This document shows positions 1 to 11,061 of a stretch of DNA of 11,061 bases, piece after piece. The notes below the pieces were generated by a model. That model worked only from the letters and a program-made list of their open reading frames with translations, had not been told where the DNA came from and ran no database searches. Where the stretch lies: positions 1-11,061 of the forward strand of contig SKRJ01000423.1 of assembly GCA_007118555.1 (NCBI GenBank), read 5' to 3'. This DNA is from Anaerolineae bacterium (lineage in GTDB: Bacteria > Chloroflexota > Anaerolineae > UBA1429). The position numbers were made by a program, and so were the translations under genes. Every line of letters begins with the position of its first letter. The first letter of the stretch is position 1.

Positions 1-585
1 ATCGCCGGCATGGTGGGCCTGCTGGTGGTCGCTCGCGTGGGGCCCCGCGCCGTGGACTGGCTCTGGCGCTGGATCGGGCGCTTGCCCCTGGTGGGGCACC
101 CCAAGGTCAGGGAGGGGCTGATCCACCTCGCCGAGGGTTGCGCCGTTCTCACACACACCCGCAGGCTGGTGCCGGTGCTGCTGACCACGGCGGCCATCTG
201 GCTGGGCTATGCGGGGATGAACCGCCTGATGATGTACGTCTTTGGCATGCAGGGCTTGCCGCTGACGGCGGCCGCGCTGGTGCTGTGCTTTACCGGCCTC
301 AGCATGGTGGTGCCCTCTTCGCCGGGGGCCATCGGGCCGTTCGAGTGGGCCGGCGTGCAGGCTCTGGCGCTCTTTGGCGTCGAGCAGAGCGCGGCCTTTG
401 GGTATACGTTGGGGCTGCATCTCTTTACCAACCTCTCGCTCATCGGTCTGGGCCTTGTGGGGCTGGTCAACCAGGGCCTCAGCTATAGCCGCATCACACG
501 GGTGGTGGCCGAGACCGAGCAGACCCCCGCGGCCACTCCGCAGGAGATGCCGATCGTCTCTGATCCCGTGGAGCGGACCTCTTGA
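1..585 (+). CDS. UPF0104 / flippase-like (LPG synthase TM-region family) membrane protein, 5' partial
   Basis: This is the C-terminal 194 residues of an integral membrane protein whose frame is open at base 1, so the true start lies upstream; the ATG at base 10 is internal. Hydrophobic segments occupy roughly residues 56-82, 88-128 and 132-160, and a short polar tail ends at the TGA at 583-585. The segment encoded at about 310-350 reads PSSPGAIGPFE. It matches the Pro/Ser-Pro-Gly-Gly-x-Gly-x-x-Glu signature of the UPF0104 family (PF03706, the transmembrane region of MprF-type lysylphosphatidylglycerol synthases and AglD-like archaeal proteins). No catalytic MprF C-terminal domain is present. 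In polysaccharide and glycolipid clusters such stand-alone proteins are usually annotated as flippase-like, but the substrate is unknown. Its stop overlaps the start of the glycosyltransferase gene, which suggests co-translation. The family call is fairly secure; the function is inferred. Confidence 0.8.
   Translation: MAGMVGLLVVARVGPRAVDWLWRWIGRLPLVGHPKVREGLIHLAEGCAVLTHTRRLVPVLLTTAAIWLGYAGMNRLMMYVFGMQGLPLTAAALVLCFTGLSMVVPSSPGAIGPFEWAGVQALALFGVEQSAAFGYTLGLHLFTNLSLIGLGLVGLVNQGLSYSRITRVVAETEQTPAATPQEMPIVSDPVERTS
570..573 (+). promoter_or_regulatory. Ribosome binding site for the TTG-started glycosyltransferase
   Basis: GGAG ends 8 nt before the TTG at 582-584. This spacing supports TTG as the start. 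The next in-frame ATG, at 597, has no purine-rich site at a comparable distance and would trim the first beta strand typical of GT4 proteins. Confidence 0.5.
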
Positions 586-1724
586 CCCGCGTCCTCATGG
601 CGCTGACCTACTATTACCCCCACTGGACCGGGCTGACGGCCAATGCGGCGAACCTGGCGGCGGGGCTGGTGCGGCATGGTCATGAGGTGACCGTGGTCAC
701 GTCCCGGTATCGGCGGGACCTGCCCCGCGTCGAAGAGCATCAGGGGGTGCGCATCGTGCGGGTGCCCTCGGTGCTGCGTCTCAGTCGTGGCCAGGTGATG
801 CCCGGCTTTTACGGCGCCATGCGGCGGCTGCTCCCCGAGCACGATGTGGCCCTGGTGGTCACGCCCATGCTCGAGACCTGCCTGGTGGGGGCGTTGGCCC
901 GCCGCGCGAACAAGCCGATGGTGATGGCGCACCAGGGCGACCTGGTAATGCCCGGCGGCGCGTGGAACCAGGTGGTGCAGCGGGTCGTGGGCTGGCTGCT
1001 GGATCGGGGCGCCCAGAGCGCCGACCGGATCACGATCCTGAACCAGGACTATGCCGAGCACTCGGCCTACCTGCGGCCTCACCTGGACAAGGTAGAGGCC
1101 ATCTACCCGCCCATGGCGATCCCAGAGCCCCGGCCCGAGGCCGTCGCAACCTGGCGGCGCGAGCTGGGGCTGGAGGGGCGGCCTGTGGTGGGCTTTGCGG
1201 GCCGCTTTGTGGAGGAAAAGGGGTTCGACTATTTGCTGCAGGCCATGCCCCTGGTGGCCGAGCGCATCCCCGATGTGGCCTTTGCCTTTGCGGGCGAGAC
1301 CTCGGTGGCCTATGAGGCGTTCTACGATTGCTGCCGGCCACTGGTCGAGGCCAACGCCGAGCGCCTGCACGTGCTGGGGCTGATCACCGACCGCCAGCGC
1401 CTGGCCGATTTCTACAGCCTGTGCGATCTGTTCGTGTTGCCCAGCCGCACCGATTGCTTTGCCGTCGTGCAGGTCGAGGCCATGCTGTGCGGGACGCCGG
1501 TGGTGGTCAGCGACATCCCGGGCGCCCGCGAGCCGGTGCGCGTCACCGGCATGGGCTGCAAGGTGAATCCGGGTGATCCGCGCGCCCTGGCCGATGGCAT
1601 CGTCGACGTGCTGCGCAATCCGGCGCGCTACCACCGACCCCGCCACGAGATCGAGGCCATCTTTGACCCCGATGCCACGGTGGCGGCCTACGAGCGGCTC
1701 TTTGCCGAACTGACCGATGGGTAG
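582..1724 (+). CDS. GT4-family (GT-B fold) glycosyltransferase
   Basis: This is a 380-residue cytoplasmic or membrane-associated GT-B enzyme, expected to move a sugar from a nucleotide-sugar donor to a lipid-linked or glycan acceptor. The N-terminal domain (about 1-190) opens with the MTRVLMALTYYYPHWTG strand-loop, followed by a helix and HGHEVTVVTS. The C-terminal Glycos_transf_1 domain (about 195-355) begins GFAGRFVEEKG; R208 and K213 sit where the family's donor-phosphate-binding Arg/Lys lie. The EX7E motif appears as D291-X7-E299 (DCFAVVQVE), followed by AMLCGTPVVVSD. The first acidic residue is therefore Asp instead of the usual Glu. I chose the TTG at 582 because it is preceded by GGAG at good spacing, shares bases with the upstream TGA, and gives the expected family N-terminus; ATG 597 is the alternative. 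No membrane segment is evident. The sugar and acceptor cannot be read from the sequence. The family assignment is strong. Confidence 0.9.
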   Translation: MTRVLMALTYYYPHWTGLTANAANLAAGLVRHGHEVTVVTSRYRRDLPRVEEHQGVRIVRVPSVLRLSRGQVMPGFYGAMRRLLPEHDVALVVTPMLETCLVGALARRANKPMVMAHQGDLVMPGGAWNQVVQRVVGWLLDRGAQSADRITILNQDYAEHSAYLRPHLDKVEAIYPPMAIPEPRPEAVATWRRELGLEGRPVVGFAGRFVEEKGFDYLLQAMPLVAERIPDVAFAFAGETSVAYEAFYDCCRPLVEANAERLHVLGLITDRQRLADFYSLCDLFVLPSRTDCFAVVQVEAMLCGTPVVVSDIPGAREPVRVTGMGCKVNPGDPRALADGIVDVLRNPARYHRPRHEIEAIFDPDATVAAYERLFAELTDG

Positions 1725-1728
1725 GAGG
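1723..1728 (+). promoter_or_regulatory. Ribosome binding site deciding the methyltransferase start
   Basis: A perfect AGGAGG overlaps the TAG stop of the glycosyltransferase and ends 3 nt before ATG 1732. An earlier in-frame ATG at 1717 lies inside the upstream gene and has no purine-rich site before it. The site therefore favours 1732, although the spacer is short. The overlap of stop and ribosome binding site suggests translational coupling. Confidence 0.6.
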
Positions 1729-1731
1729 GTC

Positions 1732-2604
1732 ATGGCTGAGGCTGGCTGGTTGACGCCCGAGCAAGAGACGACCCTGGCGCGCCTGCTGCGCAACGAGTCG
1801 GACGTGGCCTATCGGCGGCGGGTGCGCACCATGCTGCGCTATCTCGACCCACAGCCCGGCCAGGTGATCCTGGATTGCGGCACCGGCATGGGGTTCTATG
1901 CCCAGACCATTCACCGCCTCTTTCCCGAGTGTCACGTGGTGGGCATCGATGGCGACCCCCAGGCGCTGGCCTTTGCCCGGGAGCATGTGGGCGACTATAC
2001 CGGGCTGACGTGGGGGGACATCCAGCGCCTGCCCTTTCGAGAGGGCAGCTTTGACGCCGTGCTGCTCTCCGAGGTGCTGGAGCATCTGGACGATGACCTG
2101 GGCGGCCTGCGGCAGATCTATCGCGTGCTCAAGCCCGGGGGCGTGCTGGCCATCACCGTGCCCTATGCACGCTACCCCTACTGGTACGATCCGATCAACC
2201 GCGTCGCCGAGGGGGTGTTTCGGCGGCCCATCCGTCAGGGCCCCTTTGCCGGGATTTGGGCCAACCACCAGCGCCTGTACGAGCCCGAGGCGCTGCGCTC
2301 GGTGCTCACAGACGCGGGCTTTGCCACGGGCCCCATCGAGCAGCTCACACACTACTGCTTTCCCGGCACACAGACCATCGTCTATACTCTGGGCAAGGGC
2401 CTGATTGAGCGCAATCTGCTGCCGGGCAGCATCCTGCGCTCGACCCACCGCTTCTCCGGCGAAGAGAACCGGGGCAGTGGCCTGAACCCGCTGAACTGGG
2501 CCCTGGCCCTGTTCCACGCCATCGACCGCCTGAACGAGAATCCGGCTCGCCTGGCCGAGAAACGCACCTTTGTGAACCTGGCCGTGCGCGCCACCAAGGA
2601 ATAG
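1732..2604 (+). CDS. Class I SAM-dependent methyltransferase (Methyltransf_11-like)
   Basis: This is a 290-residue soluble protein with the Rossmann-fold methyltransferase motifs in order. Motif I is ILDCGTGMG at about residues 46-54. The acidic loop after strand 2 is GIDGD at 71-75. A DIQRLPF segment lies near 96-102. Motif II is FDAVLLSEVLEHLDDD, with the EVLEHL signature at about 114-119, and RVLKPGGVLAITVP follows at 131-144. These support transfer of a methyl group from S-adenosylmethionine. The acceptor is unknown; the context between glycosyltransferases suggests a sugar, sugar-lipid or glycan terminus. After the core fold there is an extension of about 90 residues (200-290) containing GLIERNLLPGS and NPLNWALALFHAIDRLNENPA, which is longer than a minimal enzyme of this type and could bind substrate or membrane. 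ATG 1717 would add five residues (MGRRV) but lacks a ribosome binding site. The fold assignment is secure; the substrate is not. Confidence 0.88.
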   Translation: MAEAGWLTPEQETTLARLLRNESDVAYRRRVRTMLRYLDPQPGQVILDCGTGMGFYAQTIHRLFPECHVVGIDGDPQALAFAREHVGDYTGLTWGDIQRLPFREGSFDAVLLSEVLEHLDDDLGGLRQIYRVLKPGGVLAITVPYARYPYWYDPINRVAEGVFRRPIRQGPFAGIWANHQRLYEPEALRSVLTDAGFATGPIEQLTHYCFPGTQTIVYTLGKGLIERNLLPGSILRSTHRFSGEENRGSGLNPLNWALALFHAIDRLNENPARLAEKRTFVNLAVRATKE

Positions 2605-2626: not shown

Positions 2627-4621
2627 ATGGATCCGAGCCAGCGCCCGGGGATGACTCACGCCCACACTACGCCCGCGACCTCTCTGGCCCGCCAGGTCTG
2701 GATGCCTGCACTGGCGCTGGCGGCCGGCGCCCTGGCCCAGTGGCTGCTGGATCTGGACCGCTTCGTCGCGCTGGCGTGGGCGCTTTTTCTGCTGGCGGCG
2801 GTCCTGTTCGGCCTGTGGAGCCGCGGCATCCCTGAGCGAGACGGGGACGTGCCTCTGCCGGCGACACCCTTTCGCGTGCGGTGGCCCTGGCTGGCGCTGG
2901 CGGCCGCGCTGGCTCTGCTGGCCTGGGTCAATCTGGGCGGCAATGTCCTTACCGCTGTGGGCGTTGCAGCCTGGGGCGCGGCGTTGCTGGGAGCCCTGCT
3001 GGCCGTGTGGCCGGGTCGGTCGTTGCGTCGGTTGGTGCGCGATCAGAGGGTGCATCTCTCGTGGCCCACTGTGGGCGTGCTGGTGGCCATGGCCGTGGCA
3101 GCCTTTTTTCGGCTGCATCGCATCGGGACAATCCCGCTGGAGATGGGCCCCGACCTGCCGCTCAACCAGTTCAATATCGCCCAGATCCTGGCGGGCGAGT
3201 ATCCGATCTTTTTCACCTCCCATCCGGGCCGGGAGGGGCTCTTTTTCTACCTGGCCGCTCCGGTGGCGGCGGCGCTGGGGCTGAGCCATGGGAGCATCAA
3301 GGTCACGTCGGCGCTCGTCGGCATACTGACGGTGCCCGCGGTGTATTGGCTGGGGCGCGAGCTGTACGATCGGTGGGCGGGGGTGCTGGCCGCAGGGTTC
3401 CTGGCCATCAGCCACTGGCACATTATGCTGACGCGGGTGGGTTACCGGGCCTCGCTGATGCCGCTGCTGGTGGCGCTCTCGTGGCTGTTCCTGCTGCGGG
3501 GACTCCGGCGCGGGCGGGCCCATGACTATGCCTTGAGCGGCCTGTGGGCGGGGCTGGGCCTGCAGACATACAATGCCTTTATGGTGGCGCCGCCCCTCTT
3601 TGTGGGGGTGCTGCTGATCGCCTGGGCCGGGCGGCGGCGTCTGGACGTCAACGTGCATGGCCGCGCCATCGCGATGTGGGTCCTGGTGGCCCTTTTGGCG
3701 GCGTTGCCGCTGGCCCGCTACGCCAGCGAGGACGCCGAAAGCTACCTCTACCGGGTAGCCACGCGCGCCACCGACCGGGAGCAGCCGCTGCCCGAGGGCC
3801 TGGCGGCCACGCTGGTGGGCAATGCGGGGCGCGCCGCGGCCATGTTTCACCATGTGGGCGACATTGTCTACACCACCAACGTCCCCCACCATCGGCAGCT
3901 TGGTTTTGGCACGGGGGTGCTGTTCGTGCTGGGGCTGGGCTATGCAGCCTGCCATGGGCGACGCAAGCAGGTTTGGACGGTGTGGCTGCTTTTGCCCGGT
4001 TTCCTCATGCCGTCTATTATGGCTTTGGCCTTTCCTGCGGAGGTGCCCAGCGCGGTGCGGTCCATCGGCGCGCTGCCGGCGGCCGTCATATTGCCCGCCC
4101 TGGCGACGCGCCGGCTCGGCGAGGGTCTGGCGACGGCCTGGCGGAAAGGGGGTCGTGTCACACGCCTGGCAGGGGCGGGGATGGTTCTGGCCGTGCTGAT
4201 CGGCCTGGTGGGCGAGGCGGTGGCGGTGTACCCCCTCTATTTTCGCGACTATGTGTGGCACCAGCCCCACCACAATCAGTCGATCTCGCTCAAGTTGGCC
4301 CAGACCATCGACCGCTATCATGGCGAGGGCGACGTGTACCTGATGATCTGGCCCCACTGGTACGATGGGAACGCCGTGCGGGCCCAGCTCCGGCACGCGC
4401 ACCTGCGGCGGGCGCCACAGGCCTGGAACAACGAGCGCTGGGAGTTGCGCCCCGGCGAGCCGCCCCTCGATGGCGCGCCCGGCCGCGTGACGGTGATCCT
4501 GCATCCCGACGAGCGAGCGACGCTGCAGTTGCTGCAGGAGCACTATGAACGCTACGCGGTGCTGGAGGAGCGTTGGGAGGATGGGAGCGTCGCGCTGCGG
4601 GTATTTGTAGGCGAACGATAG
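2627..4621 (+). CDS. GT-C fold membrane glycosyltransferase, family 39 / PMT_2-like
   Basis: This 664-residue multi-pass protein has hydrophobic helices over most of residues 25-540 and a soluble C-terminal region of about 120 residues. GT-C enzymes of this type transfer a sugar from a polyprenyl-phosphate donor to an acceptor on the outer face of the membrane. The first long loop reads RIGTIPLEMGPD (about 165-176), followed by GEYPIFF (190-196) and HPGREGLFFYL (199-209). This is the arrangement of Chloroflexota family-39-like proteins, with D176 at the position of the catalytic first-loop acid. The residue after it is Leu, not the Glu of the common Asp-Glu pair. A later PSAVRSIGALPA segment (474-485) also fits the family. 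The C-terminal region contains IWPHWYDGNAVRAQL (574-588). The gene starts 22 nt after the methyltransferase and ends 19 nt before the giant gene, so it belongs to the same operon. The donor and acceptor are unknown. Confidence 0.85.
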   Translation: MDPSQRPGMTHAHTTPATSLARQVWMPALALAAGALAQWLLDLDRFVALAWALFLLAAVLFGLWSRGIPERDGDVPLPATPFRVRWPWLALAAALALLAWVNLGGNVLTAVGVAAWGAALLGALLAVWPGRSLRRLVRDQRVHLSWPTVGVLVAMAVAAFFRLHRIGTIPLEMGPDLPLNQFNIAQILAGEYPIFFTSHPGREGLFFYLAAPVAAALGLSHGSIKVTSALVGILTVPAVYWLGRELYDRWAGVLAAGFLAISHWHIMLTRVGYRASLMPLLVALSWLFLLRGLRRGRAHDYALSGLWAGLGLQTYNAFMVAPPLFVGVLLIAWAGRRRLDVNVHGRAIAMWVLVALLAALPLARYASEDAESYLYRVATRATDREQPLPEGLAATLVGNAGRAAAMFHHVGDIVYTTNVPHHRQLGFGTGVLFVLGLGYAACHGRRKQVWTVWLLLPGFLMPSIMALAFPAEVPSAVRSIGALPAAVILPALATRRLGEGLATAWRKGGRVTRLAGAGMVLAVLIGLVGEAVAVYPLYFRDYVWHQPHHNQSISLKLAQTIDRYHGEGDVYLMIWPHWYDGNAVRAQLRHAHLRRAPQAWNNERWELRPGEPPLDGAPGRVTVILHPDERATLQLLQEHYERYAVLEERWEDGSVALRVFVGER

Positions 4622-4632
4622 AGTTCCGCTCC

Positions 4633-4639
4633 GAGGTGA
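4633..4639 (+). promoter_or_regulatory. Ribosome binding site of the giant membrane-protein gene
   Basis: GAGGTGA is complementary to the 16S rRNA tail over seven bases. Its GAGG core ends 4 nt before ATG 4641. It occupies the 19-nt gap after the preceding stop and fixes the start of the long frame. Confidence 0.6.
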
Positions 4640-4640
4640 G

Positions 4641-6719
4641 ATGTCCGACCTGTCGATAGAACGTGACCAGCAAGAGGCGCCCGTGACCGAGGCGGATCTG
4701 CCGAACGCGTCCCATCGCGTTCGGCGTCGTGGCTCGTGGCGGCCCCTGGCGGTGGCCCTGGCCCTGATCGCCATTCTGCTCGTGGGGGCGGGGCTGCGCT
4801 TTGTGGGGCTGAACTGGGACGAGAACCAGCATCTGCACCCCGACGAGCGCTTTGTCACCATGGTGGAAAACAGCCTCGACTGGCCCGCGTCGCTGGGCGA
4901 GTATTTCGACACCGAGACCAACCCGTTGAACCCCTACAACCGGGGCTTTGGCGCCTATGTCTATGGTCTGCTTCCGGTGATCGTGGCCAAGTTCGTCGGC
5001 GAGGTCACCGGGTACACCGGCTATGGCGGCGTCTTTCTCGCGGGGCGGGCGCTGTCGGGCGTGTACGACCTGATGTCGGTGCTGTTGGTGTTTGCCATCG
5101 GGCGCCGCCTGTACGACGCGCGGGTGGGTCTGGTGGGGGCGCTGCTGGCGGCCCTGAGCGTGCTCAACATCCAGAACGCCCACTTTTTCACCGTCGACAG
5201 CATGATGACCTTTTTCGTCACCCTGGCCCTCTATTTCGCGGTGCGGGTGGCGCAGGGCGAGGGCTGGGGCAGCATCCTGGGACTGGGGATCGCCTTTGGG
5301 CTGGCGGTCTCGTCCAAGATCAGCGTCCTGTCGTTCCTGCTCGTGATCGGGCTGGCGGCCCTGCTGCGGGTGTTTCGTCGCCCTGCCACGAGGGATGATC
5401 TCGAGCCCTGGGAGCGTCAGCGCCGGCTGCGGCTCGGCCCCTGGCGGCTGAGCCTGCAGGTCGAGCGGGAGACGCCGCCGGCCGAGACCCCGCCCATCGA
5501 TCGAGTCCTCGGCGGATTCCTCGTGACGGGGGCGCTGCTGGTCGTGGTGGTGTTTGTCGCGTTCTGGGCCTTTCGCGTCGCCCAGCCCCAGGCGTTCACC
5601 GGGCCCGGGCTGCTTGGCGTGCGCCTCAACCCGCGCTGGCTCGAGGACATGCGCTATATCCAGCGGCTGGTGAGCGGCGAGATCGACTATCCCCCCAGCC
5701 ACCAGTGGGCGGCGCGGGCGCCGGTGACGTACATGCTCGAGAACATGGTGCTTTGGGGCACGGGGCTGCCCCTGGGGCTCACGATCTGGGCCGCGTGGGG
5801 CCTGATGGCCTACCAGATGTACCGTCGCAACGTCTGGGCGCACCTGCTGCCCTGGGTGTGGATGACGTTCACCTTTTTCTACCAGAGCGTCCAGTTCGTC
5901 AAGCCGGTGCGCTATCTGCTGCCGATCTATCCCACCATGGCGGTGATGGCGGGCTTTGGTCTGGTGTGGCTGTGGGATCGGGGCAGGGGCACGCGACTGC
6001 CGCTGCGAATGGTGGCGCGGGGCGTCGTGGTCACGGTGCTGGTGGGCACGGCGATATGGGCGCTCGCCTTTGCCAGCATCTACACGCGGCCGGTCACCCG
6101 GGTGACGGCCTCGCGCTGGATCTATGAGCACATCTCCCCGGGCTCGACCCTCTCTTTCGAGCTGTGGGACGATCCCCTGCCCCTGAATCTGGACGGTCAG
6201 GTCGGCGACCAGATCTATGACACGGTGCGCATGGACCTCTACTGGGAGGACATTCCCGAAAAGCGCGAGGCGCTCTACGAGTGGATCGAGCAGGTGGACT
6301 ATATCATTCTGAGCAGCAACCGCCTGTACGGCTCGATCCCCCGGCTGCCCATGCGCTATCCGATGACCACCCGTTACTATGAGGCCCTGTTCTCCGGCGA
6401 GCTCGGGTTTGATCTCCTGCACAAGTTCACCTCGCGCCCCCAGCTCTTGGGCGTCCAGTTTGTGGACGATCACGCCGACGAGACCTTTACCGTCTATGAC
6501 CATCCCGTCGTCCTGATCTACGAAAAGCGGGACGATTTCGACATGGCCCAGGTGCGGGCCCTGTTCGACGACATCGACCTGGAGCGGGTGATACGGATGA
6601 TGCCGCGCGAGGTGAACAACGCGCCCAACAACCTGATGCTGGACGAGACGACCTGGCAGGCCCAGCGCCAGAGCGGCACCTGGTCGGCGATGTTCAACCG
6701 GTTCAACTTGCGCAACCGG
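4641..6719 (+). other. Domain: N-terminal GT-C / PMT-like module of the giant protein
   Basis: Residues 1-693. A short basic cytoplasmic N-terminus precedes the first helix (about 35-57). The first outer loop carries two acidic pairs eight residues apart, D60-E61 and D68-E69, in DENQHLHPDERF; this is the position of catalytic acids in GT-C enzymes. NPYNRGFGAYVYG (about 97-109) leads into the next helix. After the last helix, about 480-693 is soluble and begins TRPVTRVTASRWIYEHI with the WDDPLPL stretch soon after. This combination recurs in Chloroflexota family-39-like proteins from memory. The boundary with the next module is placed where hydrophobic sequence resumes at about residue 694. 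Confidence 0.7.
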
Positions 6720-9700
6720 TACCCCACGCTGACTTGGGCGGTGGCGCTCCTCGTGGTAGGGCTCGTGGGCTTTCCGCTGCTGTTCCCGATCCTGCGGCAT
6801 CTGCCGGACGGCGGCTATGGCCTCGCCAAGACGACGGGGTTCCTTATGCTGGGCTACCTGGCGTGGCTGGCCGCCAGCGTGCGGGCGCTGCCCTTTGCGC
6901 CGGGCACCGTGGCAGCTGCGCTGGTCGTGTTGGTCGTGGCGGCGGGCCTGGCCGCCCGGTGGCAGCGGCGTGCCTTGGGCGCGTTTGTGCGGGCGCGCTG
7001 GCGCCTGTTGGCCCTGAGCGAGCTGGCCTTTTGGGCGTTCTTTGTCGGCTTTTGGCTCATCCGCCGGGGCAACCCCGACCTGTGGCATCCGGTGATGGGC
7101 GGCGAAAAGCCGATGGACCTGGCCTATCTGAACGCCATCCTGCGCAGCGACTACTTTCCGCCTCTGGATCCCTGGTTCGCCGGTGGCTATATCAACTATT
7201 ACTACTGGGGCTGGGTGCCCGTGGCTTCGCTGATCCTGCTGACGGGCATCGTGCCCACCGTGGCGTACAACCTGGCGCTGCCCACGCTGTTCGCCCTGAT
7301 GGTGGTCGGCGTGGTGAGCGTCGTGGGACACCTGCTGCCCCCCGGGGATGGCGACGGGCGCCGCTTTCGGTACGGCCTGCTGGGGGCGCTGCTCGTGGGC
7401 GTGGCGGGCAACCTGGGGCAGGTGCGCCTGCTCTGGGAGCGTGCGACCGACGTCGGGCAGCGCCTCGCGGGGGAGAGCGCCGCGACGCTGTGGGGGCGGG
7501 TGGCGCAGGGGCTGCGCGGTCTGTGGGCCGTTGTCGCCCAGGGCGAACCGGTGGTCATGCGGCCCGAGTGGCCCTACTGGAACGCCAGCCGCATCATGCC
7601 CCACGGCGAGATCACCGAGTTTCCCTTTTTCTCCTTTCTCTATGGCGATCTGCACGCCCACGTCATGGCCATGCCGCTGGCGGTGCTGGCCCTGGGGCTG
7701 GCCGTGGCCCTCGTGGGACGACCGCACCCGCCGATGCGAGAGCGTTCGATGCGGCGAGGGCTCCGGCGCGTGGACGGGACGCGGGTAGGGCACATCCTCT
7801 GGCTGGGATTGGCGCTGGGGGCCCTCTGGTGCGCCAACTCGTGGGACTATCCCACCTACACGGGGCTGGCCGTGGCGGCGCTGGCCGTCTCGACTCTCGC
7901 TATGCGCCCCCTCGACAGGCACGCGGTGGCGGCGGTGGCGTTGCAGGGCGGCGCCATTGTGGTGCTGAGTCTACTGCTCTATCAGCCGTTTCACGCCCAT
8001 TTCGGCATGGCCTATAGCAGCGTCGAGCTCTGGCAGGGCGAGCGCACCGCCCTGGGCGATTACCTGCTGATTCATCTGCCGTTCCTCTTTATCCTGGGTA
8101 GCTACCTGCTTTGGGCGGCGCGGGGGCCCATCCGCCGCAGCCCCTGGTATCGCTCGCTGCGGCTGAACCTGGCGTCGCAGTCCCGCTATCTGCGGGCGCA
8201 ACGGCTGCGCTGGGTGCTGGTGCGGCGTCCTACGCTGGCCTATACGCTGGTCTGGGTGGGACTGTTGACGGCGGCAGTGTTCCTGGTGCTGTTGATGCTG
8301 CTGGGGGCCTGGACGACGCTGCTGGCGGTGCTCCTGCTGGCCCTGGCGGCGGTGACGCTGCTGCGGCCCGGCATCGAGCCCCGGCGCCGCCTGCTGGCGC
8401 TCCTGATCGGCGTGGGCCTGGCCCTCACGGCGGGCGTCGAGTGGGTCGTCCTGCGGGGCGATATCGGCCGCATGAACACAGTGTTCAAGTTCTACCTGCA
8501 GGTATGGATCCTGTGGGGGATTGCGTCGGCTGTGGTGCTGGGTCTGTTCGCAGGGGGCGGCTCGCGCGCGCCCCGTCCCACGCAGCGCGGCTGGTGGCGC
8601 GTGGCTCTGGTCCTGCTGCTGGTGGGGATGGCGGCCTATCCCCTGTGGGCGACCCCGGCCAAGCTGGACGACCGCTGGGGCGTCGAGATGGAGCCCACGC
8701 TGGATGGCATGGCCTACATGGACGTGGCCCGCTACTATGACCGGGAGCGCGAGCTGACGCTGGCCCATGACGCCGGCGCGATCCGCTGGATGCAGGACCA
8801 CGTCGTCGGCTCGCCGGTCATTGCCGAGGCCAACACGCCCCTGTACCGCTGGGGCAGCCGGATCTCGGTGTATACCGGGCTGCCCACCATCGTGGGCTGG
8901 GATTGGCATCAGCGCCAACAGCGCGCGGCCCTGAGCGGGGTCGTCGTGGACTGGCGCCTGCAGGACCTGCGCGAGCTGTACGAGACGCCCAGCATCGAGC
9001 GCGCCGTGGACCTGCTGGCCCGCTACCAGGTGGGCCTGATCTATGTGGGCGAGCTGGAGCAGGCCTATTACTCGGAGCAGGGCCTGCAGAAATTCGAGTG
9101 GATGGTGGGCCAGCACCTGGACATCGTGTACGCCGAAGGTCCGGTGACCATCTACCGGGTTCTGGACGCCGACGTGCAAACGGTTTCCGAACCGCCGGTG
9201 GCTGCACCGTCGGTTTCCGAACCCTCGGTGTCCGAACCGTCGGCGCCCGTGCCGTCGGTCAGCACCTGGGGCGATAGCCTGCGCCAATGGCTGGCCCGAT
9301 GGTGGATGCCTCCGACGGTGGCCGCCCAGGGACCGCCGCCCGCTGTGCTCCCAGAGCCCGAGCCCGACAGTGCGCCGCTGATGCTGGATGTGCCCGTCGA
9401 GGAGCTGCCCGTGGTCGATGGACGGGGCTGGAACCAGGCGGCCACCCGATCCACGCCGCTGGCCATCGTCGCCTGGTGGCTGGCGCTGCTGTTTATCGGC
9501 CTGGCGGGCTGGCCCCTGGCGGCGGCGGTGTTTCCGACATGGCCCGACCGGGGCTATCTCCTGGCCAAGGGGTTGGGCCTGCTGCTGGTGGGGTTCCTGC
9601 TCTGGCTGGGGGCGAGCCTGGGCCTGTTCCGTAACACCCTTGCCTCGCTCGGGGCCGTCCTGGGGGGCGTGGCGCTGGTGGCATGGCTGCTGGGGTGGCG

Positions 9701-11061
9701 TGGGTGGTCGCGACCCGACTGGCGCGCCGTGTTGAGGGGTGAGATCCTGTTCAGCGGCGCGTTCCTGCTTTGGGTCGGCATTCGCATCCTGAACCCCGAC
9801 TTGTGGCACCCTTGGTTCGGCGGTGAAAAGATGATGGAGATGGCCATGCTCAACGCCGTGGCCCGCTCGGCCCATTTCCCGCCCTATGACGCCTATTTCG
9901 CGGGCGGAATCCTGAGCTATTGCTACTATGGCTACTTGCTGACTCTGGTGCGCATGCGGCTGAGCGGCGTGGCGCCCGAGGTGGCGTTCAACCTGGCGGT
10001 GCCCACGTTCTTTGCCCTCACGGTGAGCCACGCCTATGCGGTGGCGGGGCGGATGCTCGGCGGTACATTGCGCCGCGGGGCGGGGATTGCGGGCGCGTTG
10101 TTGGTGGCCGGGGTGGGCAACCTCTCGGGGGCGGCGCAGGTGGCCCAGCCGATGCTGGCGGCGGGGTGCCCCGAGGGGGTGGGCAGCGCGGGGCAGGGGC
10201 TGCTATGCCTGGCCCGGGGCGCCGTCGTCGCAGCGCGAGGCGGGTTGCCGCCCTTTTTTTTCGACTACTGGTACCGTGGCACCCGCATCATCCCCTTTAC
10301 CATCAACGAGTTTCCCTTCTTCACCTTTCTCTTTGCCGATCTGCACCCGCACCTGATGGCCATGCCGTTCGGCCTGCTGGTGCTGGCCCTGGCCGGCGCG
10401 CTGCTGGCGCCCGGGCCGCGTAGCTTTGGTGCGCAGATGCTGCTCGTGGGGCTCTTGGCCCTGACGCTGGGCGCCCTCGGGGTCATCAACACCTGGGATC
10501 TGCCCATTTACCTGCTGATCGTGGCCGCCATCCTGCTCGTCAGGGGTTATCGGCAGGCCGGTCTCCGCGGGATCGGCACCGGCGGCGCCCTGGCCTTGGG
10601 GGTGGGGCTGGTCGCCCTGCTGGCCTATGCGCCCTTTTACCGACATTTCGAGCCCCAGTACACGGGCCTGGCCCTGCTGCCGGCCGAGGAACGCACGCAG
10701 GTCGGCCCCTTTTTCCTGATTTGGGGGCTGTTTGTCTATCTGCTGATCGGCGCCCTCGCCTGGGGGCTGAGCCGGCTGGCGCCCTGGCGGCGGACCGGCC
10801 ATGCGGCGCGGCGTTGGGGCGGTGGGCGCCTGTTGCGACGCGCCTGGGGTCTGGGGCTCCGCCCCTATGTGCTGGGCCTGGCAGGCGGCAGCGTGGGGTG
10901 GGTGGCCCTGGTGATGGGGACGGTGCTGCTCGTGCGCGGCCCCTATGTGTGGCCGGGGCTCCTGGTGCTGATGGCGCCCACGGTGGTGTTGTGCCTGAGC
11001 GCTGTGGCGGCCCGGCGCCGCCTGCTCCCCTGGCTGCTCCTCCTGGGCGCCCAGGGGATCC
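4641..11061 (+). CDS. Giant membrane protein: GT-C-like module plus two tandem DUF2298 (Chlor_Arch_YYY) modules, 3' partial
   Basis: I read this frame from ATG 4641 to the last base without a stop: 2140 complete codons, still open. Three membrane modules follow one another. Residues 1-693 are a GT-C/PMT-like unit with D60-E61 and HPDER (66-70) in the first outer loop, and a soluble region at about 480-693. Residues 694-1513 are a complete DUF2298 unit with NPDLWHP (811-817), GGEK (820-823), YYYWG (853-857), EFPFF...DLHAH (993-1007), NSWD (1066-1069), RMNTVFKFY (1277-1285) and WHQRQQR (1422-1428). Residues 1514-1606 are a Pro-rich linker. From 1607 a second DUF2298 unit repeats NPDLWHP (1718), GGEK (1727), YCYYG (1760), EFPFF...DLHPH (1890-1904) and NTWD (1950), then runs off the window. 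As I recall the TIGR03662 description, one family class has exactly this plan (extra N-terminal region, two YYY copies, then TPR repeats), of unknown function. A C-terminal TPR region would therefore lie downstream. The protein should sit in the cytoplasmic membrane. A role in glycan or glycolipid transfer is inferred from the GT-C module and the neighbours. Confidence 0.9.
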   Translation, partial: MSDLSIERDQQEAPVTEADLPNASHRVRRRGSWRPLAVALALIAILLVGAGLRFVGLNWDENQHLHPDERFVTMVENSLDWPASLGEYFDTETNPLNPYNRGFGAYVYGLLPVIVAKFVGEVTGYTGYGGVFLAGRALSGVYDLMSVLLVFAIGRRLYDARVGLVGALLAALSVLNIQNAHFFTVDSMMTFFVTLALYFAVRVAQGEGWGSILGLGIAFGLAVSSKISVLSFLLVIGLAALLRVFRRPATRDDLEPWERQRRLRLGPWRLSLQVERETPPAETPPIDRVLGGFLVTGALLVVVVFVAFWAFRVAQPQAFTGPGLLGVRLNPRWLEDMRYIQRLVSGEIDYPPSHQWAARAPVTYMLENMVLWGTGLPLGLTIWAAWGLMAYQMYRRNVWAHLLPWVWMTFTFFYQSVQFVKPVRYLLPIYPTMAVMAGFGLVWLWDRGRGTRLPLRMVARGVVVTVLVGTAIWALAFASIYTRPVTRVTASRWIYEHISPGSTLSFELWDDPLPLNLDGQVGDQIYDTVRMDLYWEDIPEKREALYEWIEQVDYIILSSNRLYGSIPRLPMRYPMTTRYYEALFSGELGFDLLHKFTSRPQLLGVQFVDDHADETFTVYDHPVVLIYEKRDDFDMAQVRALFDDIDLERVIRMMPREVNNAPNNLMLDETTWQAQRQSGTWSAMFNRFNLRNRYPTLTWAVALLVVGLVGFPLLFPILRHLPDGGYGLAKTTGFLMLGYLAWLAASVRALPFAPGTVAAALVVLVVAAGLAARWQRRALGAFVRARWRLLALSELAFWAFFVGFWLIRRGNPDLWHPVMGGEKPMDLAYLNAILRSDYFPPLDPWFAGGYINYYYWGWVPVASLILLTGIVPTVAYNLALPTLFALMVVGVVSVVGHLLPPGDGDGRRFRYGLLGALLVGVAGNLGQVRLLWERATDVGQRLAGESAATLWGRVAQGLRGLWAVVAQGEPVVMRPEWPYWNASRIMPHGEITEFPFFSFLYGDLHAHVMAMPLAVLALGLAVALVGRPHPPMRERSMRRGLRRVDGTRVGHILWLGLALGALWCANSWDYPTYTGLAVAALAVSTLAMRPLDRHAVAAVALQGGAIVVLSLLLYQPFHAHFGMAYSSVELWQGERTALGDYLLIHLPFLFILGSYLLWAARGPIRRSPWYRSLRLNLASQSRYLRAQRLRWVLVRRPTLAYTLVWVGLLTAAVFLVLLMLLGAWTTLLAVLLLALAAVTLLRPGIEPRRRLLALLIGVGLALTAGVEWVVLRGDIGRMNTVFKFYLQVWILWGIASAVVLGLFAGGGSRAPRPTQRGWWRVALVLLLVGMAAYPLWATPAKLDDRWGVEMEPTLDGMAYMDVARYYDRERELTLAHDAGAIRWMQDHVVGSPVIAEANTPLYRWGSRISVYTGLPTIVGWDWHQRQQRAALSGVVVDWRLQDLRELYETPSIERAVDLLARYQVGLIYVGELEQAYYSEQGLQKFEWMVGQHLDIVYAEGPVTIYRVLDADVQTVSEPPVAAPSVSEPSVSEPSAPVPSVSTWGDSLRQWLARWWMPPTVAAQGPPPAVLPEPEPDSAPLMLDVPVEELPVVDGRGWNQAATRSTPLAIVAWWLALLFIGLAGWPLAAAVFPTWPDRGYLLAKGLGLLLVGFLLWLGASLGLFRNTLASLGAVLGGVALVAWLLGWRGWSRPDWRAVLRGEILFSGAFLLWVGIRILNPDLWHPWFGGEKMMEMAMLNAVARSAHFPPYDAYFAGGILSYCYYGYLLTLVRMRLSGVAPEVAFNLAVPTFFALTVSHAYAVAGRMLGGTLRRGAGIAGALLVAGVGNLSGAAQVAQPMLAAGCPEGVGSAGQGLLCLARGAVVAARGGLPPFFFDYWYRGTRIIPFTINEFPFFTFLFADLHPHLMAMPFGLLVLALAGALLAPGPRSFGAQMLLVGLLALTLGALGVINTWDLPIYLLIVAAILLVRGYRQAGLRGIGTGGALALGVGLVALLAYAPFYRHFEPQYTGLALLPAEERTQVGPFFLIWGLFVYLLIGALAWGLSRLAPWRRTGHAARRWGGGRLLRRAWGLGLRPYVLGLAGGSVGWVALVMGTVLLVRGPYVWPGLLVLMAPTVVLCLSAVAARRRLLPWLLLLGAQGI
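6720..9179 (+). other. Domain: first DUF2298 / YYY module, complete
   Basis: Residues 694-1513, about 820 long, matching the 700-900 residues I recall for stand-alone members. It holds all family landmarks visible here: NPDLWHP, GGEK, the intact YYYWG motif at 7197-7211, EFPFFSFLYGDLHAH, NSWDYP, RMNTVFKFY and GWDWHQRQQR. A final helix at about 1321-1341 is followed by a soluble region to 1513 that contains the WHQRQQR motif and is probably outside the membrane. Confidence 0.8.
9180..9254. repeat. 15-bp tandem repeat encoding five-residue Pro/Ser/Val units
   Basis: Five consecutive 15-bp units start at 9180, 9195, 9210, 9225 and 9240, with a degenerate sixth at 9255. The clearest copies are TCGGTTTCCGAACCC and TCGGTGTCCGAACCG. 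In frame they encode TVSEP, PVAAP, SVSEP, SVSEP and SAPVP. They form the start of the linker between the two DUF2298 modules (residues 1514-1538). Because the period is a multiple of three, copy-number change would keep the frame. Confidence 0.75.
9180..9458 (+). other. Pro-rich linker between the two YYY modules
   Basis: Residues 1514-1606 have no predicted membrane helix and low complexity. They comprise the SVSEP repeat, a Trp-rich stretch (WLARWWMPP), and then Pro/Glu-rich sequence with PEPEPDSAP. It looks like a flexible, probably extracytoplasmic spacer separating the soluble tail of module one from the first helix of module two. Confidence 0.6.
9459..11061 (+). other. Domain: second DUF2298 / YYY module, truncated by window end
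   Basis: Residues 1607 to at least 2140. The order and spacing of motifs repeat module one with an offset of 897-907 residues. In the 48-residue block starting at NPDLWHP, 29 positions are identical by my alignment; in the 20-residue block starting EFPFF, 15 are identical. The YYY motif is YCYYG here (9918-9932). The window ends before the expected RMNTVFKFY and WHQRQQR equivalents. Confidence 0.78.

What the first reader, a model, noticed from the sequence alone, without database searches (positions are those of the whole stretch)
4641..11061. One frame of at least 2140 codons joining three GT-C-like membrane units
The sequence shows an unbroken frame with a PMT/GT-C-like unit and two DUF2298 units in one chain, directly behind a stand-alone GT-C gene. 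From memory of the TIGR03662 family this architecture is known but has no assigned function. Three potential active sites fixed in one membrane protein suggest a processive or sequential sugar-transfer machine. An alternative is that the YYY units are non-catalytic channels or scaffolds for the first unit.
Basis: partly seen in the sequence, partly recalled or inferred. Interest (0 to 1): 0.75.

Follow-up and report, generated by a model that had tools for sequence, protein, structure and literature searches.

The report
Three sugar-transferase units in one protein
A large membrane protein from an uncultured Chloroflexota bacterium strings together three units that look like outward-facing sugar-transfer enzymes, two of them from a family whose job has been unknown, and comparison with relatives suggests that each unit could be a working enzyme in one cell-surface sugar pathway.

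The parts
1..585 (+). Flippase-like membrane protein (LPG_synthase_TM, PF03706), 5' end cut by the contig
   Evidence: Pfam 50.5 bits, cut-off 33.4; longer relatives (329-450 aa) lie upstream of GT4 or the methyltransferase in the same operon
582..1724 (+). GT4-family cytoplasmic glycosyltransferase
   Evidence: PF13692 104.4 bits, PF00534 99.6 bits; same place in the operon of relatives
1717..2604 (+). SAM-dependent methyltransferase
   Evidence: PF08241 79.5 bits; same place in the operon of relatives
2627..4621 (+). Stand-alone GT-C glycosyltransferase (GTC0, 664 aa); relatives P0212, P0213, P0214 carry it in frame before M1-YYY_A
   Evidence: PF13231 48.8 bits; weak archaeo_STT3 match 27.1 bits, cut-off 450; fusion mapped for P0212, GTC0 profile hits in all three
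4633..4640 (+). Shine-Dalgarno-like GAGGTGAG directly before the start codon
   Evidence: sequence printed; judged by eye, short spacing
4641..11060 (+). M1-YYY_A-YYY_B frame, 2140 codons, open at the contig end
4728..6710 (+). Unit 1 (M1), residues 30-690: PMT_2-type GT-C unit with an outer C-terminal domain
4830..4850 (+). M1 first outer loop, HLHPDER (residues 64-70), candidate catalytic Asp68/Glu69
   Evidence: H64, H66, P67, D68, E69, R70 listed as invariant in the 43-row alignment A2; coordinates
6717..9179 (+). Unit 2 (YYY_A), residues 693-1513
   Evidence: TIGR03662 and PF10060; model pLDDT 92.1, pTM 0.93; GT-C by fold comparison
7071..7214 (+). YYY_A first outer loop with EKPMD, D843 and NYYYWG
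7647..7661 (+). YYY_A D-x-H-x-H motif, residues 1003-1007 (DLHAH), candidate metal site
   Evidence: compare AglB Asp161-His-His163 (PMC8342417, passages)
8820..8930 (+). Stretch of the YYY_A outer C-terminal domain with conserved E1396 and H1423
9180..9458 (+). Pro/Ser/Glu-rich linker between YYY_A and YYY_B, predicted outside
   Evidence: sequence printed; side of the membrane inferred from the model and charge bias
9459..11060 (+). Unit 3 (YYY_B), residues 1607-2140, cut by the contig end
   Evidence: TIGR03662 318.3 bits, profile 3-495; 36% identical to YYY_A over 531 columns
9825..9932 (+). YYY_B first outer loop from EKMME (1729) to YCYYG (ends 1764)
10338..10352 (+). YYY_B D-x-H-x-H motif, residues 1900-1904 (DLHPH)

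Best explanation
The gene encodes a polytopic enzyme with three GT-C glycosyltransferase units in one chain. Each unit is predicted to face its active site outward and to take a sugar (or a short glycan) from a polyprenyl-phosphate carrier. Unit 1 is a PMT/ArnT-like GT-C with an Asp-Glu pair in the first outer loop. Units 2 and 3 are GT-C units of the YYY/DUF2298 family with an AglB-like, probably metal-binding site (E-K-x-M-D/E in outer loop 1, D-x-H-x-H in a later outer loop, E and H from the outer C-terminal domain). The cytoplasmic GT4 and methyltransferase would start and mark a lipid-linked glycan, a flippase-like protein would turn it over, and GTC0, M1, YYY_A, YYY_B and YYY_C would extend or transfer it outside, each doing a different step. 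Fusion would fix neighbouring steps beside each other. Shown here: frame, domain order, predicted fold of M1 and YYY_A, conservation, operon, paralogy. Inferred: catalysis, metal, donor, order of steps, final acceptor.
Against: I found no activity, donor or acceptor reported for a YYY protein. YYY and M1 are not detectably related by profile comparison (hhalign probability about 1%), and the YYY profile finds no relevant PDB sequence, so kinship rests on predicted fold alone. No model coordinates were at hand, so distances between the conserved residues were not measured. One YYY unit in G203 has lost the D-x-H-x-H motif (7 of 22 positions kept) while its partner unit keeps 19, so a YYY unit can persist without the site. 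In families outside the window's class the second unit has Gln (5) or Thr (1) for Glu at position 704 in the 6 of 7 that reach it. GT-C folds can be inactive (PIG-U), and Agl23 flips lipids.
Confidence: 0.55

Rival explanations
1. Only M1 is a transferase; the YYY units are GT-C-fold scaffolds or lipid-glycan binders without catalysis, as PIG-U is in the GPI transamidase.
For: PIG-U is named as an inactive GT-C relative in PMC7801869 (passage); chain U of the GPI transamidase, taken to be PIG-U, is among the M1 fold matches (7wld_U, 8imx_U). One YYY unit in G203 is decayed.
Against: A near-invariant set of E, D, H, H, N, D, R, K and E, H residues in three paralogues; a scaffold would not be expected to keep an AglB-like metal motif in each copy.
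Confidence: 0.15
2. The YYY units are flippases for lipid-linked sugars that feed M1 and the neighbouring GT-C enzymes.
For: Operon neighbours in relatives match TIGR03663, the model named for Agl23. Purified Haloarcula Agl23 translocated Man5GlcNAc2-PP-phytanol in liposomes, and the authors conclude the same for the dolichol form (PMC11182771, section 7 read).
Against: A flippase does not obviously need a conserved outer-face acidic/His cluster; the operon already has a flippase-like gene and Agl23-like genes. P0001 itself does not match TIGR03663 at E 0.1. In the cited assay the HhAgl22 control stayed at about 50% but with a half-time like that of the flippases.
Confidence: 0.15
3. YYY units are oligosaccharyltransferases: they move a finished glycan en bloc to protein, in place of STT3, which relatives of this organism seem to lack.
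For: Best fold matches are STT3 chains and the C-terminal domain is like AglB's; Asp-x-His motif as in AglB; no full-length STT3 seen in 60 genomes.
Against: No WWDYG or DGGK motif in the frame; three paralogues in one operon are more than one OST needs; STT3 leads DPY19, ALG12 and PMT by only 2-3 Z units.
Confidence: 0.12

Closest known systems
TIGR03662 / PF10060 (Chlor_Arch_YYY, DUF2298)
   Same: Units 2 and 3 together score far above the curated cut-offs (861 bits against 300; 690 against 27.8). An N-terminal unit plus two YYY copies is a known arrangement of this family (recalled from the model's description) and is common among near relatives (56 of the 242 proteins held, the window's own included).
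   Different: The one protein scanned from outside the window's class (G174) carries TPR repeats behind the second YYY; the window type, judged on its 2409-aa relative P0126, shows none.
STT3 / AglB / PglB oligosaccharyltransferases
   Same: GT-C fold with an outer C-terminal domain; an Asp-x-His motif on an outer loop, as in AglB.
   Different: No PF02516 match, no WWDYG; three helices before the GT-C core (model residues 3-82; of the GT-C rows shown, the AftA match 8if8_C reaches furthest into them).
PMT / ArnT family (GT39, GT83)
   Same: M1 matches PMT_2 and PMT and folds like Pmt4 and ArnT.
   Different: In the loci seen, M1 mostly stands in front of a YYY unit, with a related stand-alone gene in some operons; its substrate is unknown.
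Agl23 (TIGR03663)
   Same: Downstream neighbours in relatives match TIGR03663: two of the ten proteins scanned over the 126-bit cut-off (260.5 and 271.6), six more, P0212 among them, below it.
   Different: The window frame itself does not match TIGR03663 at E 0.1.

Membership tests
TIGR03662 / PF10060 | score above the curated cut-off | tested here: met
   TIGR03662 861 bits, cut-off 300; PF10060 690 bits, cut-off 27.8; two stretches. Single matches 561.7 and 318.3 bits.
TIGR03662 / PF10060 | YYYxG motif (recalled as the source of the name) | tested here: met
   YYYWG at residue 853 in YYY_A; YYY_B has YCYYG, a variant.
GT-C superfamily | GT-C membrane fold, unit 1 | tested here: met
GT-C superfamily | GT-C membrane fold, unit 2 (YYY_A) | tested here: met
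GT-C superfamily | GT-C membrane fold, unit 3 (YYY_B) | tested here: inconclusive
   not folded; inferred from 36% identity to YYY_A over 531 columns.
GT-C superfamily | acidic residue in the first outer loop | tested here: met
   M1 D68/E69; YYY_A E822, D826; YYY_B E1729, E1733. That the loop is outside is predicted.
GT-C superfamily | transfer from a polyprenyl-phosphate sugar | not testable with these tools
   needs biochemistry.
STT3/AglB/PglB (PF02516) | PF02516 profile match | tested here: not met
   not listed for P0001 at E 0.1.
STT3/AglB/PglB (PF02516) | WWDYG motif | tested here: not met
   no match in the 2140 residues, which lack the end of YYY_B.
STT3/AglB/PglB (PF02516) | second DXD motif of the Asp-x-His kind | tested here: met
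   DLHAH and DLHPH against Asp-His-His in AglB; structural equivalence not measured.
Agl23 (TIGR03663) | score above the curated cut-off | tested here: not met
   no match for P0001 at E 0.1; GTC0 17.8 bits, cut-off 126.25.

The most novel reading that the evidence does not exclude
YYY/DUF2298 proteins are an unrecognised class of metal-dependent GT-C transferases, built like AglB but with three extra helices that put the N-terminus outside, so that they can be strung behind another GT-C unit. Chloroflexota use them as covalently linked, ordered assembly lines on the outer membrane face, which also take the place of STT3.
Probability: 0.25. Interest if true: 0.8.

Novelty: new variant of a known kind. 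Interest (0 to 1): 0.52.

Why it matters
Pfam calls DUF2298 an uncharacterised membrane protein, yet 144 of 201 sampled genomes of this phylum have a TIGR03662 match, 129 above the cut-off, and so do the Haloferax and Methanosarcina controls. A GT-C assignment with a named candidate site turns 'function unknown' into a testable enzyme hypothesis. A chain with three such sites would be an unusual case of ordered sugar transfer fixed by gene fusion; two narrow searches of the held library found no paper on fused or tandem GT-C units.

Tried and rejected
Sequence-only kinship of YYY to known GT-C proteins: phmmer and a profile search of PDB sequences gave nothing relevant, and hhalign of YYY against M1 was not significant. 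So the claim rests on fold.

Frameshift, chimera or chance frame: rejected on codon-position GC and collinear homologues. Large minus-strand ORFs (858 and 1210 aa) are taken as shadows of a GC-rich coding strand; no families were sought in them.

One origin of the fused second unit inside and outside the window's class: not settled. The best tree separates them, but holding them together is not rejected (p-AU 0.24 with L047, 0.067 without). The trees are quick ones (SH-aLRT only). Dropped before the 67-row tree: P0182 and P0185 (duplicates) and the short second units of L039 and L043.

Literature. DUF2298 occurs in 2 held papers: in PMC8756737 one passage was read, a gene list; the other was seen in the listing only. 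TIGR03662, Chlor_Arch_YYY and PF10060 occur in none of the 12 papers that 'YYY domain' brought up (listing only). A GT-C/DUF search needing 3 of 6 terms gave 0 papers; GT-C fusion terms, needing 2 of 5, gave one paper, whose passages concern two separate genes. Clan searches led to passages in PMC7801869 and PMC11467057 that do not name DUF2298. Whether Pfam already files PF10060 in its GT-C clan could not be checked. Of 62 papers with 'Agl23' (20 listed) two were opened: PMC11182771 (passages and section 7) and PMC8993221 (no Agl23 in its main text). A search on Chloroflexi oligosaccharyltransferases gave one listing, not read.

Promoter and terminator scans of 4400-4800 and a tRNA scan of the window gave nothing.

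Full report
What is there. Its last frame, 4641-11060 on the + strand, has 2140 codons and no stop. Third-position GC stays between 0.85 and 0.915 in ten 600-base steps that cover 4641-10640. A relative has a 2409-aa protein with 87, 83 and 79% identity over the three units (P0126). The frame is therefore real and lacks about 270 residues. Another contig of the window's genome, C100, holds the likely continuation: the end of a stand-alone YYY gene (78% identical to that of G001 over 486 residues) and a gene 76% identical to G001's next one, which clusters with Agl23/PMT-like neighbours (not scanned itself).

The three units. PMT_2 and PMT match residues 134-257, and TIGR03662 matches 696-1507 and again from 1607 on. 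Among the 242 proteins held after two searches (lists capped at 120 each, nearest relatives, not a census), 56 are M-Y-Y, the window's own among them, 113 M-Y, 68 Y, one Y-Y, and 4 are the window's neighbours. P0212 has the stand-alone GT-C of the upstream gene fused in front of M1-YYY_A; P0213 and P0214 give the same GTC0 profile hits.

Topology. In the model, YYY has three helices (3-26, 34-54, 62-82) before the first GT-C helix (84-118). If that helix runs outward, as in GT-C proteins (established knowledge), the N-terminus of YYY lies outside, where the C-terminal domain of M1 ends; the same holds for the joint between A and B. Over 68 rows the inner loops that I assigned are positive on average (up to +6.9 for 469-506) with one at -0.1; outer loops 119-163 and 276-312 are at -2.0 and -2.7. 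Against the rule, outer loop 421-445 is at +1.2, and two short outer stretches are at +0.5 and +0.2. That an odd number of extra helices makes YYY fusable behind another GT-C unit is my inference.

Candidate site. All 68 rows of the YYY alignment have D-x-H-x-H. In AglB the metal is bound by Asp47 and by Asp161 and His163 of a second motif, Asp-His-His (PMC8342417, passages). In the 34 A, 21 B and 14 C rows, E130, D311, H313, H315, N374 and D377 do not vary where a letter is present; D134 is D or E. The A set there includes L047, which the tree puts beside B. Over 48 domains, 12 further genomes included, the 22 positions that I picked for their conservation agree almost throughout. Exceptions: the first YYY of G203 keeps 7 of 22 (its alignment is uncertain); position 704 is Q in 5 and T in 1 of the 6 second units outside the class that reach it; single changes occur elsewhere, such as C for D311 in G107 and N for D134 in G092 and G127.

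Paralogues. A tree of 67 domains separates stand-alone C (14 rows, 100), B (18 fused, one stand-alone in G002, and L047; 99) and A (33 rows, 100) (SH-aLRT, quick tree). In family f1, 9 of 15 genomes show two YYY units in one frame (G000, G001, G003, G005, G006, G008, G011, G012, G013; several cut by contig ends), two do not at this locus (G002, G009), four were not resolved. G043 of another family has it too.

Operon. In 71 loci (at least two contigs counted twice, many cut by contig ends), a GTC0-type gene occurs in 32, an Agl23/PMT-like gene in 26, GT4 in 23, flippase-like in 17, methyltransferase in 15 and a second methyltransferase group in 11. The fullest order is flippase-like, GT4, methyltransferase, GTC0, M1-YYY_A(-YYY_B), YYY_C, Agl23-like, Agl23-like with NHL propeller (families); some loci have an M1-like gene first, or other orders. 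PF02516 gives partial matches in 35 of 60 genomes (own genome: none), best 43 bits over 164 positions, longest span 69-361 of 405; 16 genomes pass the cut-off, and some matches lie in GTC0 genes of this operon.

Outside the class. Of 12 further genomes of the phylum that I fetched, chosen partly for long frames, 7 from four families (f52, f62, f88, f91) have M-Y-Y; a YYY gene follows in 6 (in G203 in two overlapping frames), and in G127 the contig ends. One of them, G174, was scanned and has TPR repeats behind the second YYY, which fits the TIGR03662 description as I recall it. Their first YYY groups with A (support 93), their second forms its own clade (100) nearer to C (80), and their stand-alone YYY groups with C (100). 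A shared origin of the second units with B is not rejected. The other 5 show M-Y or Y genes only, apart from separate M1- or GTC0-like genes.

How it most likely works. Cytoplasmic enzymes build and methylate a lipid-linked glycan or donor, it is flipped, and outer-face GT-C units extend or transfer it. Distinct paralogues with intact sites fit different steps in sequence better than a processive repeat. The scheme of donor synthase, flippase and outer GT-C is established elsewhere (PMC11754754, passage). Steps shown: frame, predicted fold, conservation, gene order. Steps inferred: catalysis, metal, donor, acceptor, order. My estimates: YYY is GT-C 0.95; YYY units catalytic 0.75; one sequential pathway 0.55.

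Known or new. The family and the architecture are in the databases; the fold and site assignment were not found in the held papers. Hence new variant of a known kind.

Noticed in passing
L051 411-3596, L037 8917-12012, L079 14724-18746: Downstream operon genes join a PMT_2-type membrane part (the first two over the TIGR03663 cut-off, the third not scanned for it) to an NHL beta-propeller.
   Followed up: partly
L112 4989-11990 (genome G203): The first YYY unit of an M-Y-Y gene keeps 7 of 22 conserved positions while the second keeps 19: a naturally decayed unit. The YYY gene that follows lies in two overlapping frames.
   Followed up: partly
second YYY units of L108, L109, L110, L111, L112, L113: Position 704 (Glu elsewhere) is Gln in five and Thr in one (L112) of the second units of M-Y-Y genes outside the window's class.
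   Followed up: no
P0212, P0213, P0214: The upstream GT-C (GTC0) is fused in front of M1-YYY_A in one chain of about 2300 aa (P0212 mapped; GTC0 profile hits in all three).
   Followed up: partly
L091 (Candidatus Collierbacteria), L060 (Acidobacteriota): Relatives of the query in records titled as other phyla; the Collierbacteria YYY is very divergent (branch 1.9). Could be transfer or binning error.
   Followed up: no
G000:C100 1-3641 (L034): Likely continuation of the window's operon: end of YYY_C and an Agl23/PMT-like gene.
   Followed up: yes
60 genomes of the window's class: No full-length STT3 (PF02516) match seen; matches are partial, the longest 69-361 of 405 positions.
   Followed up: partly
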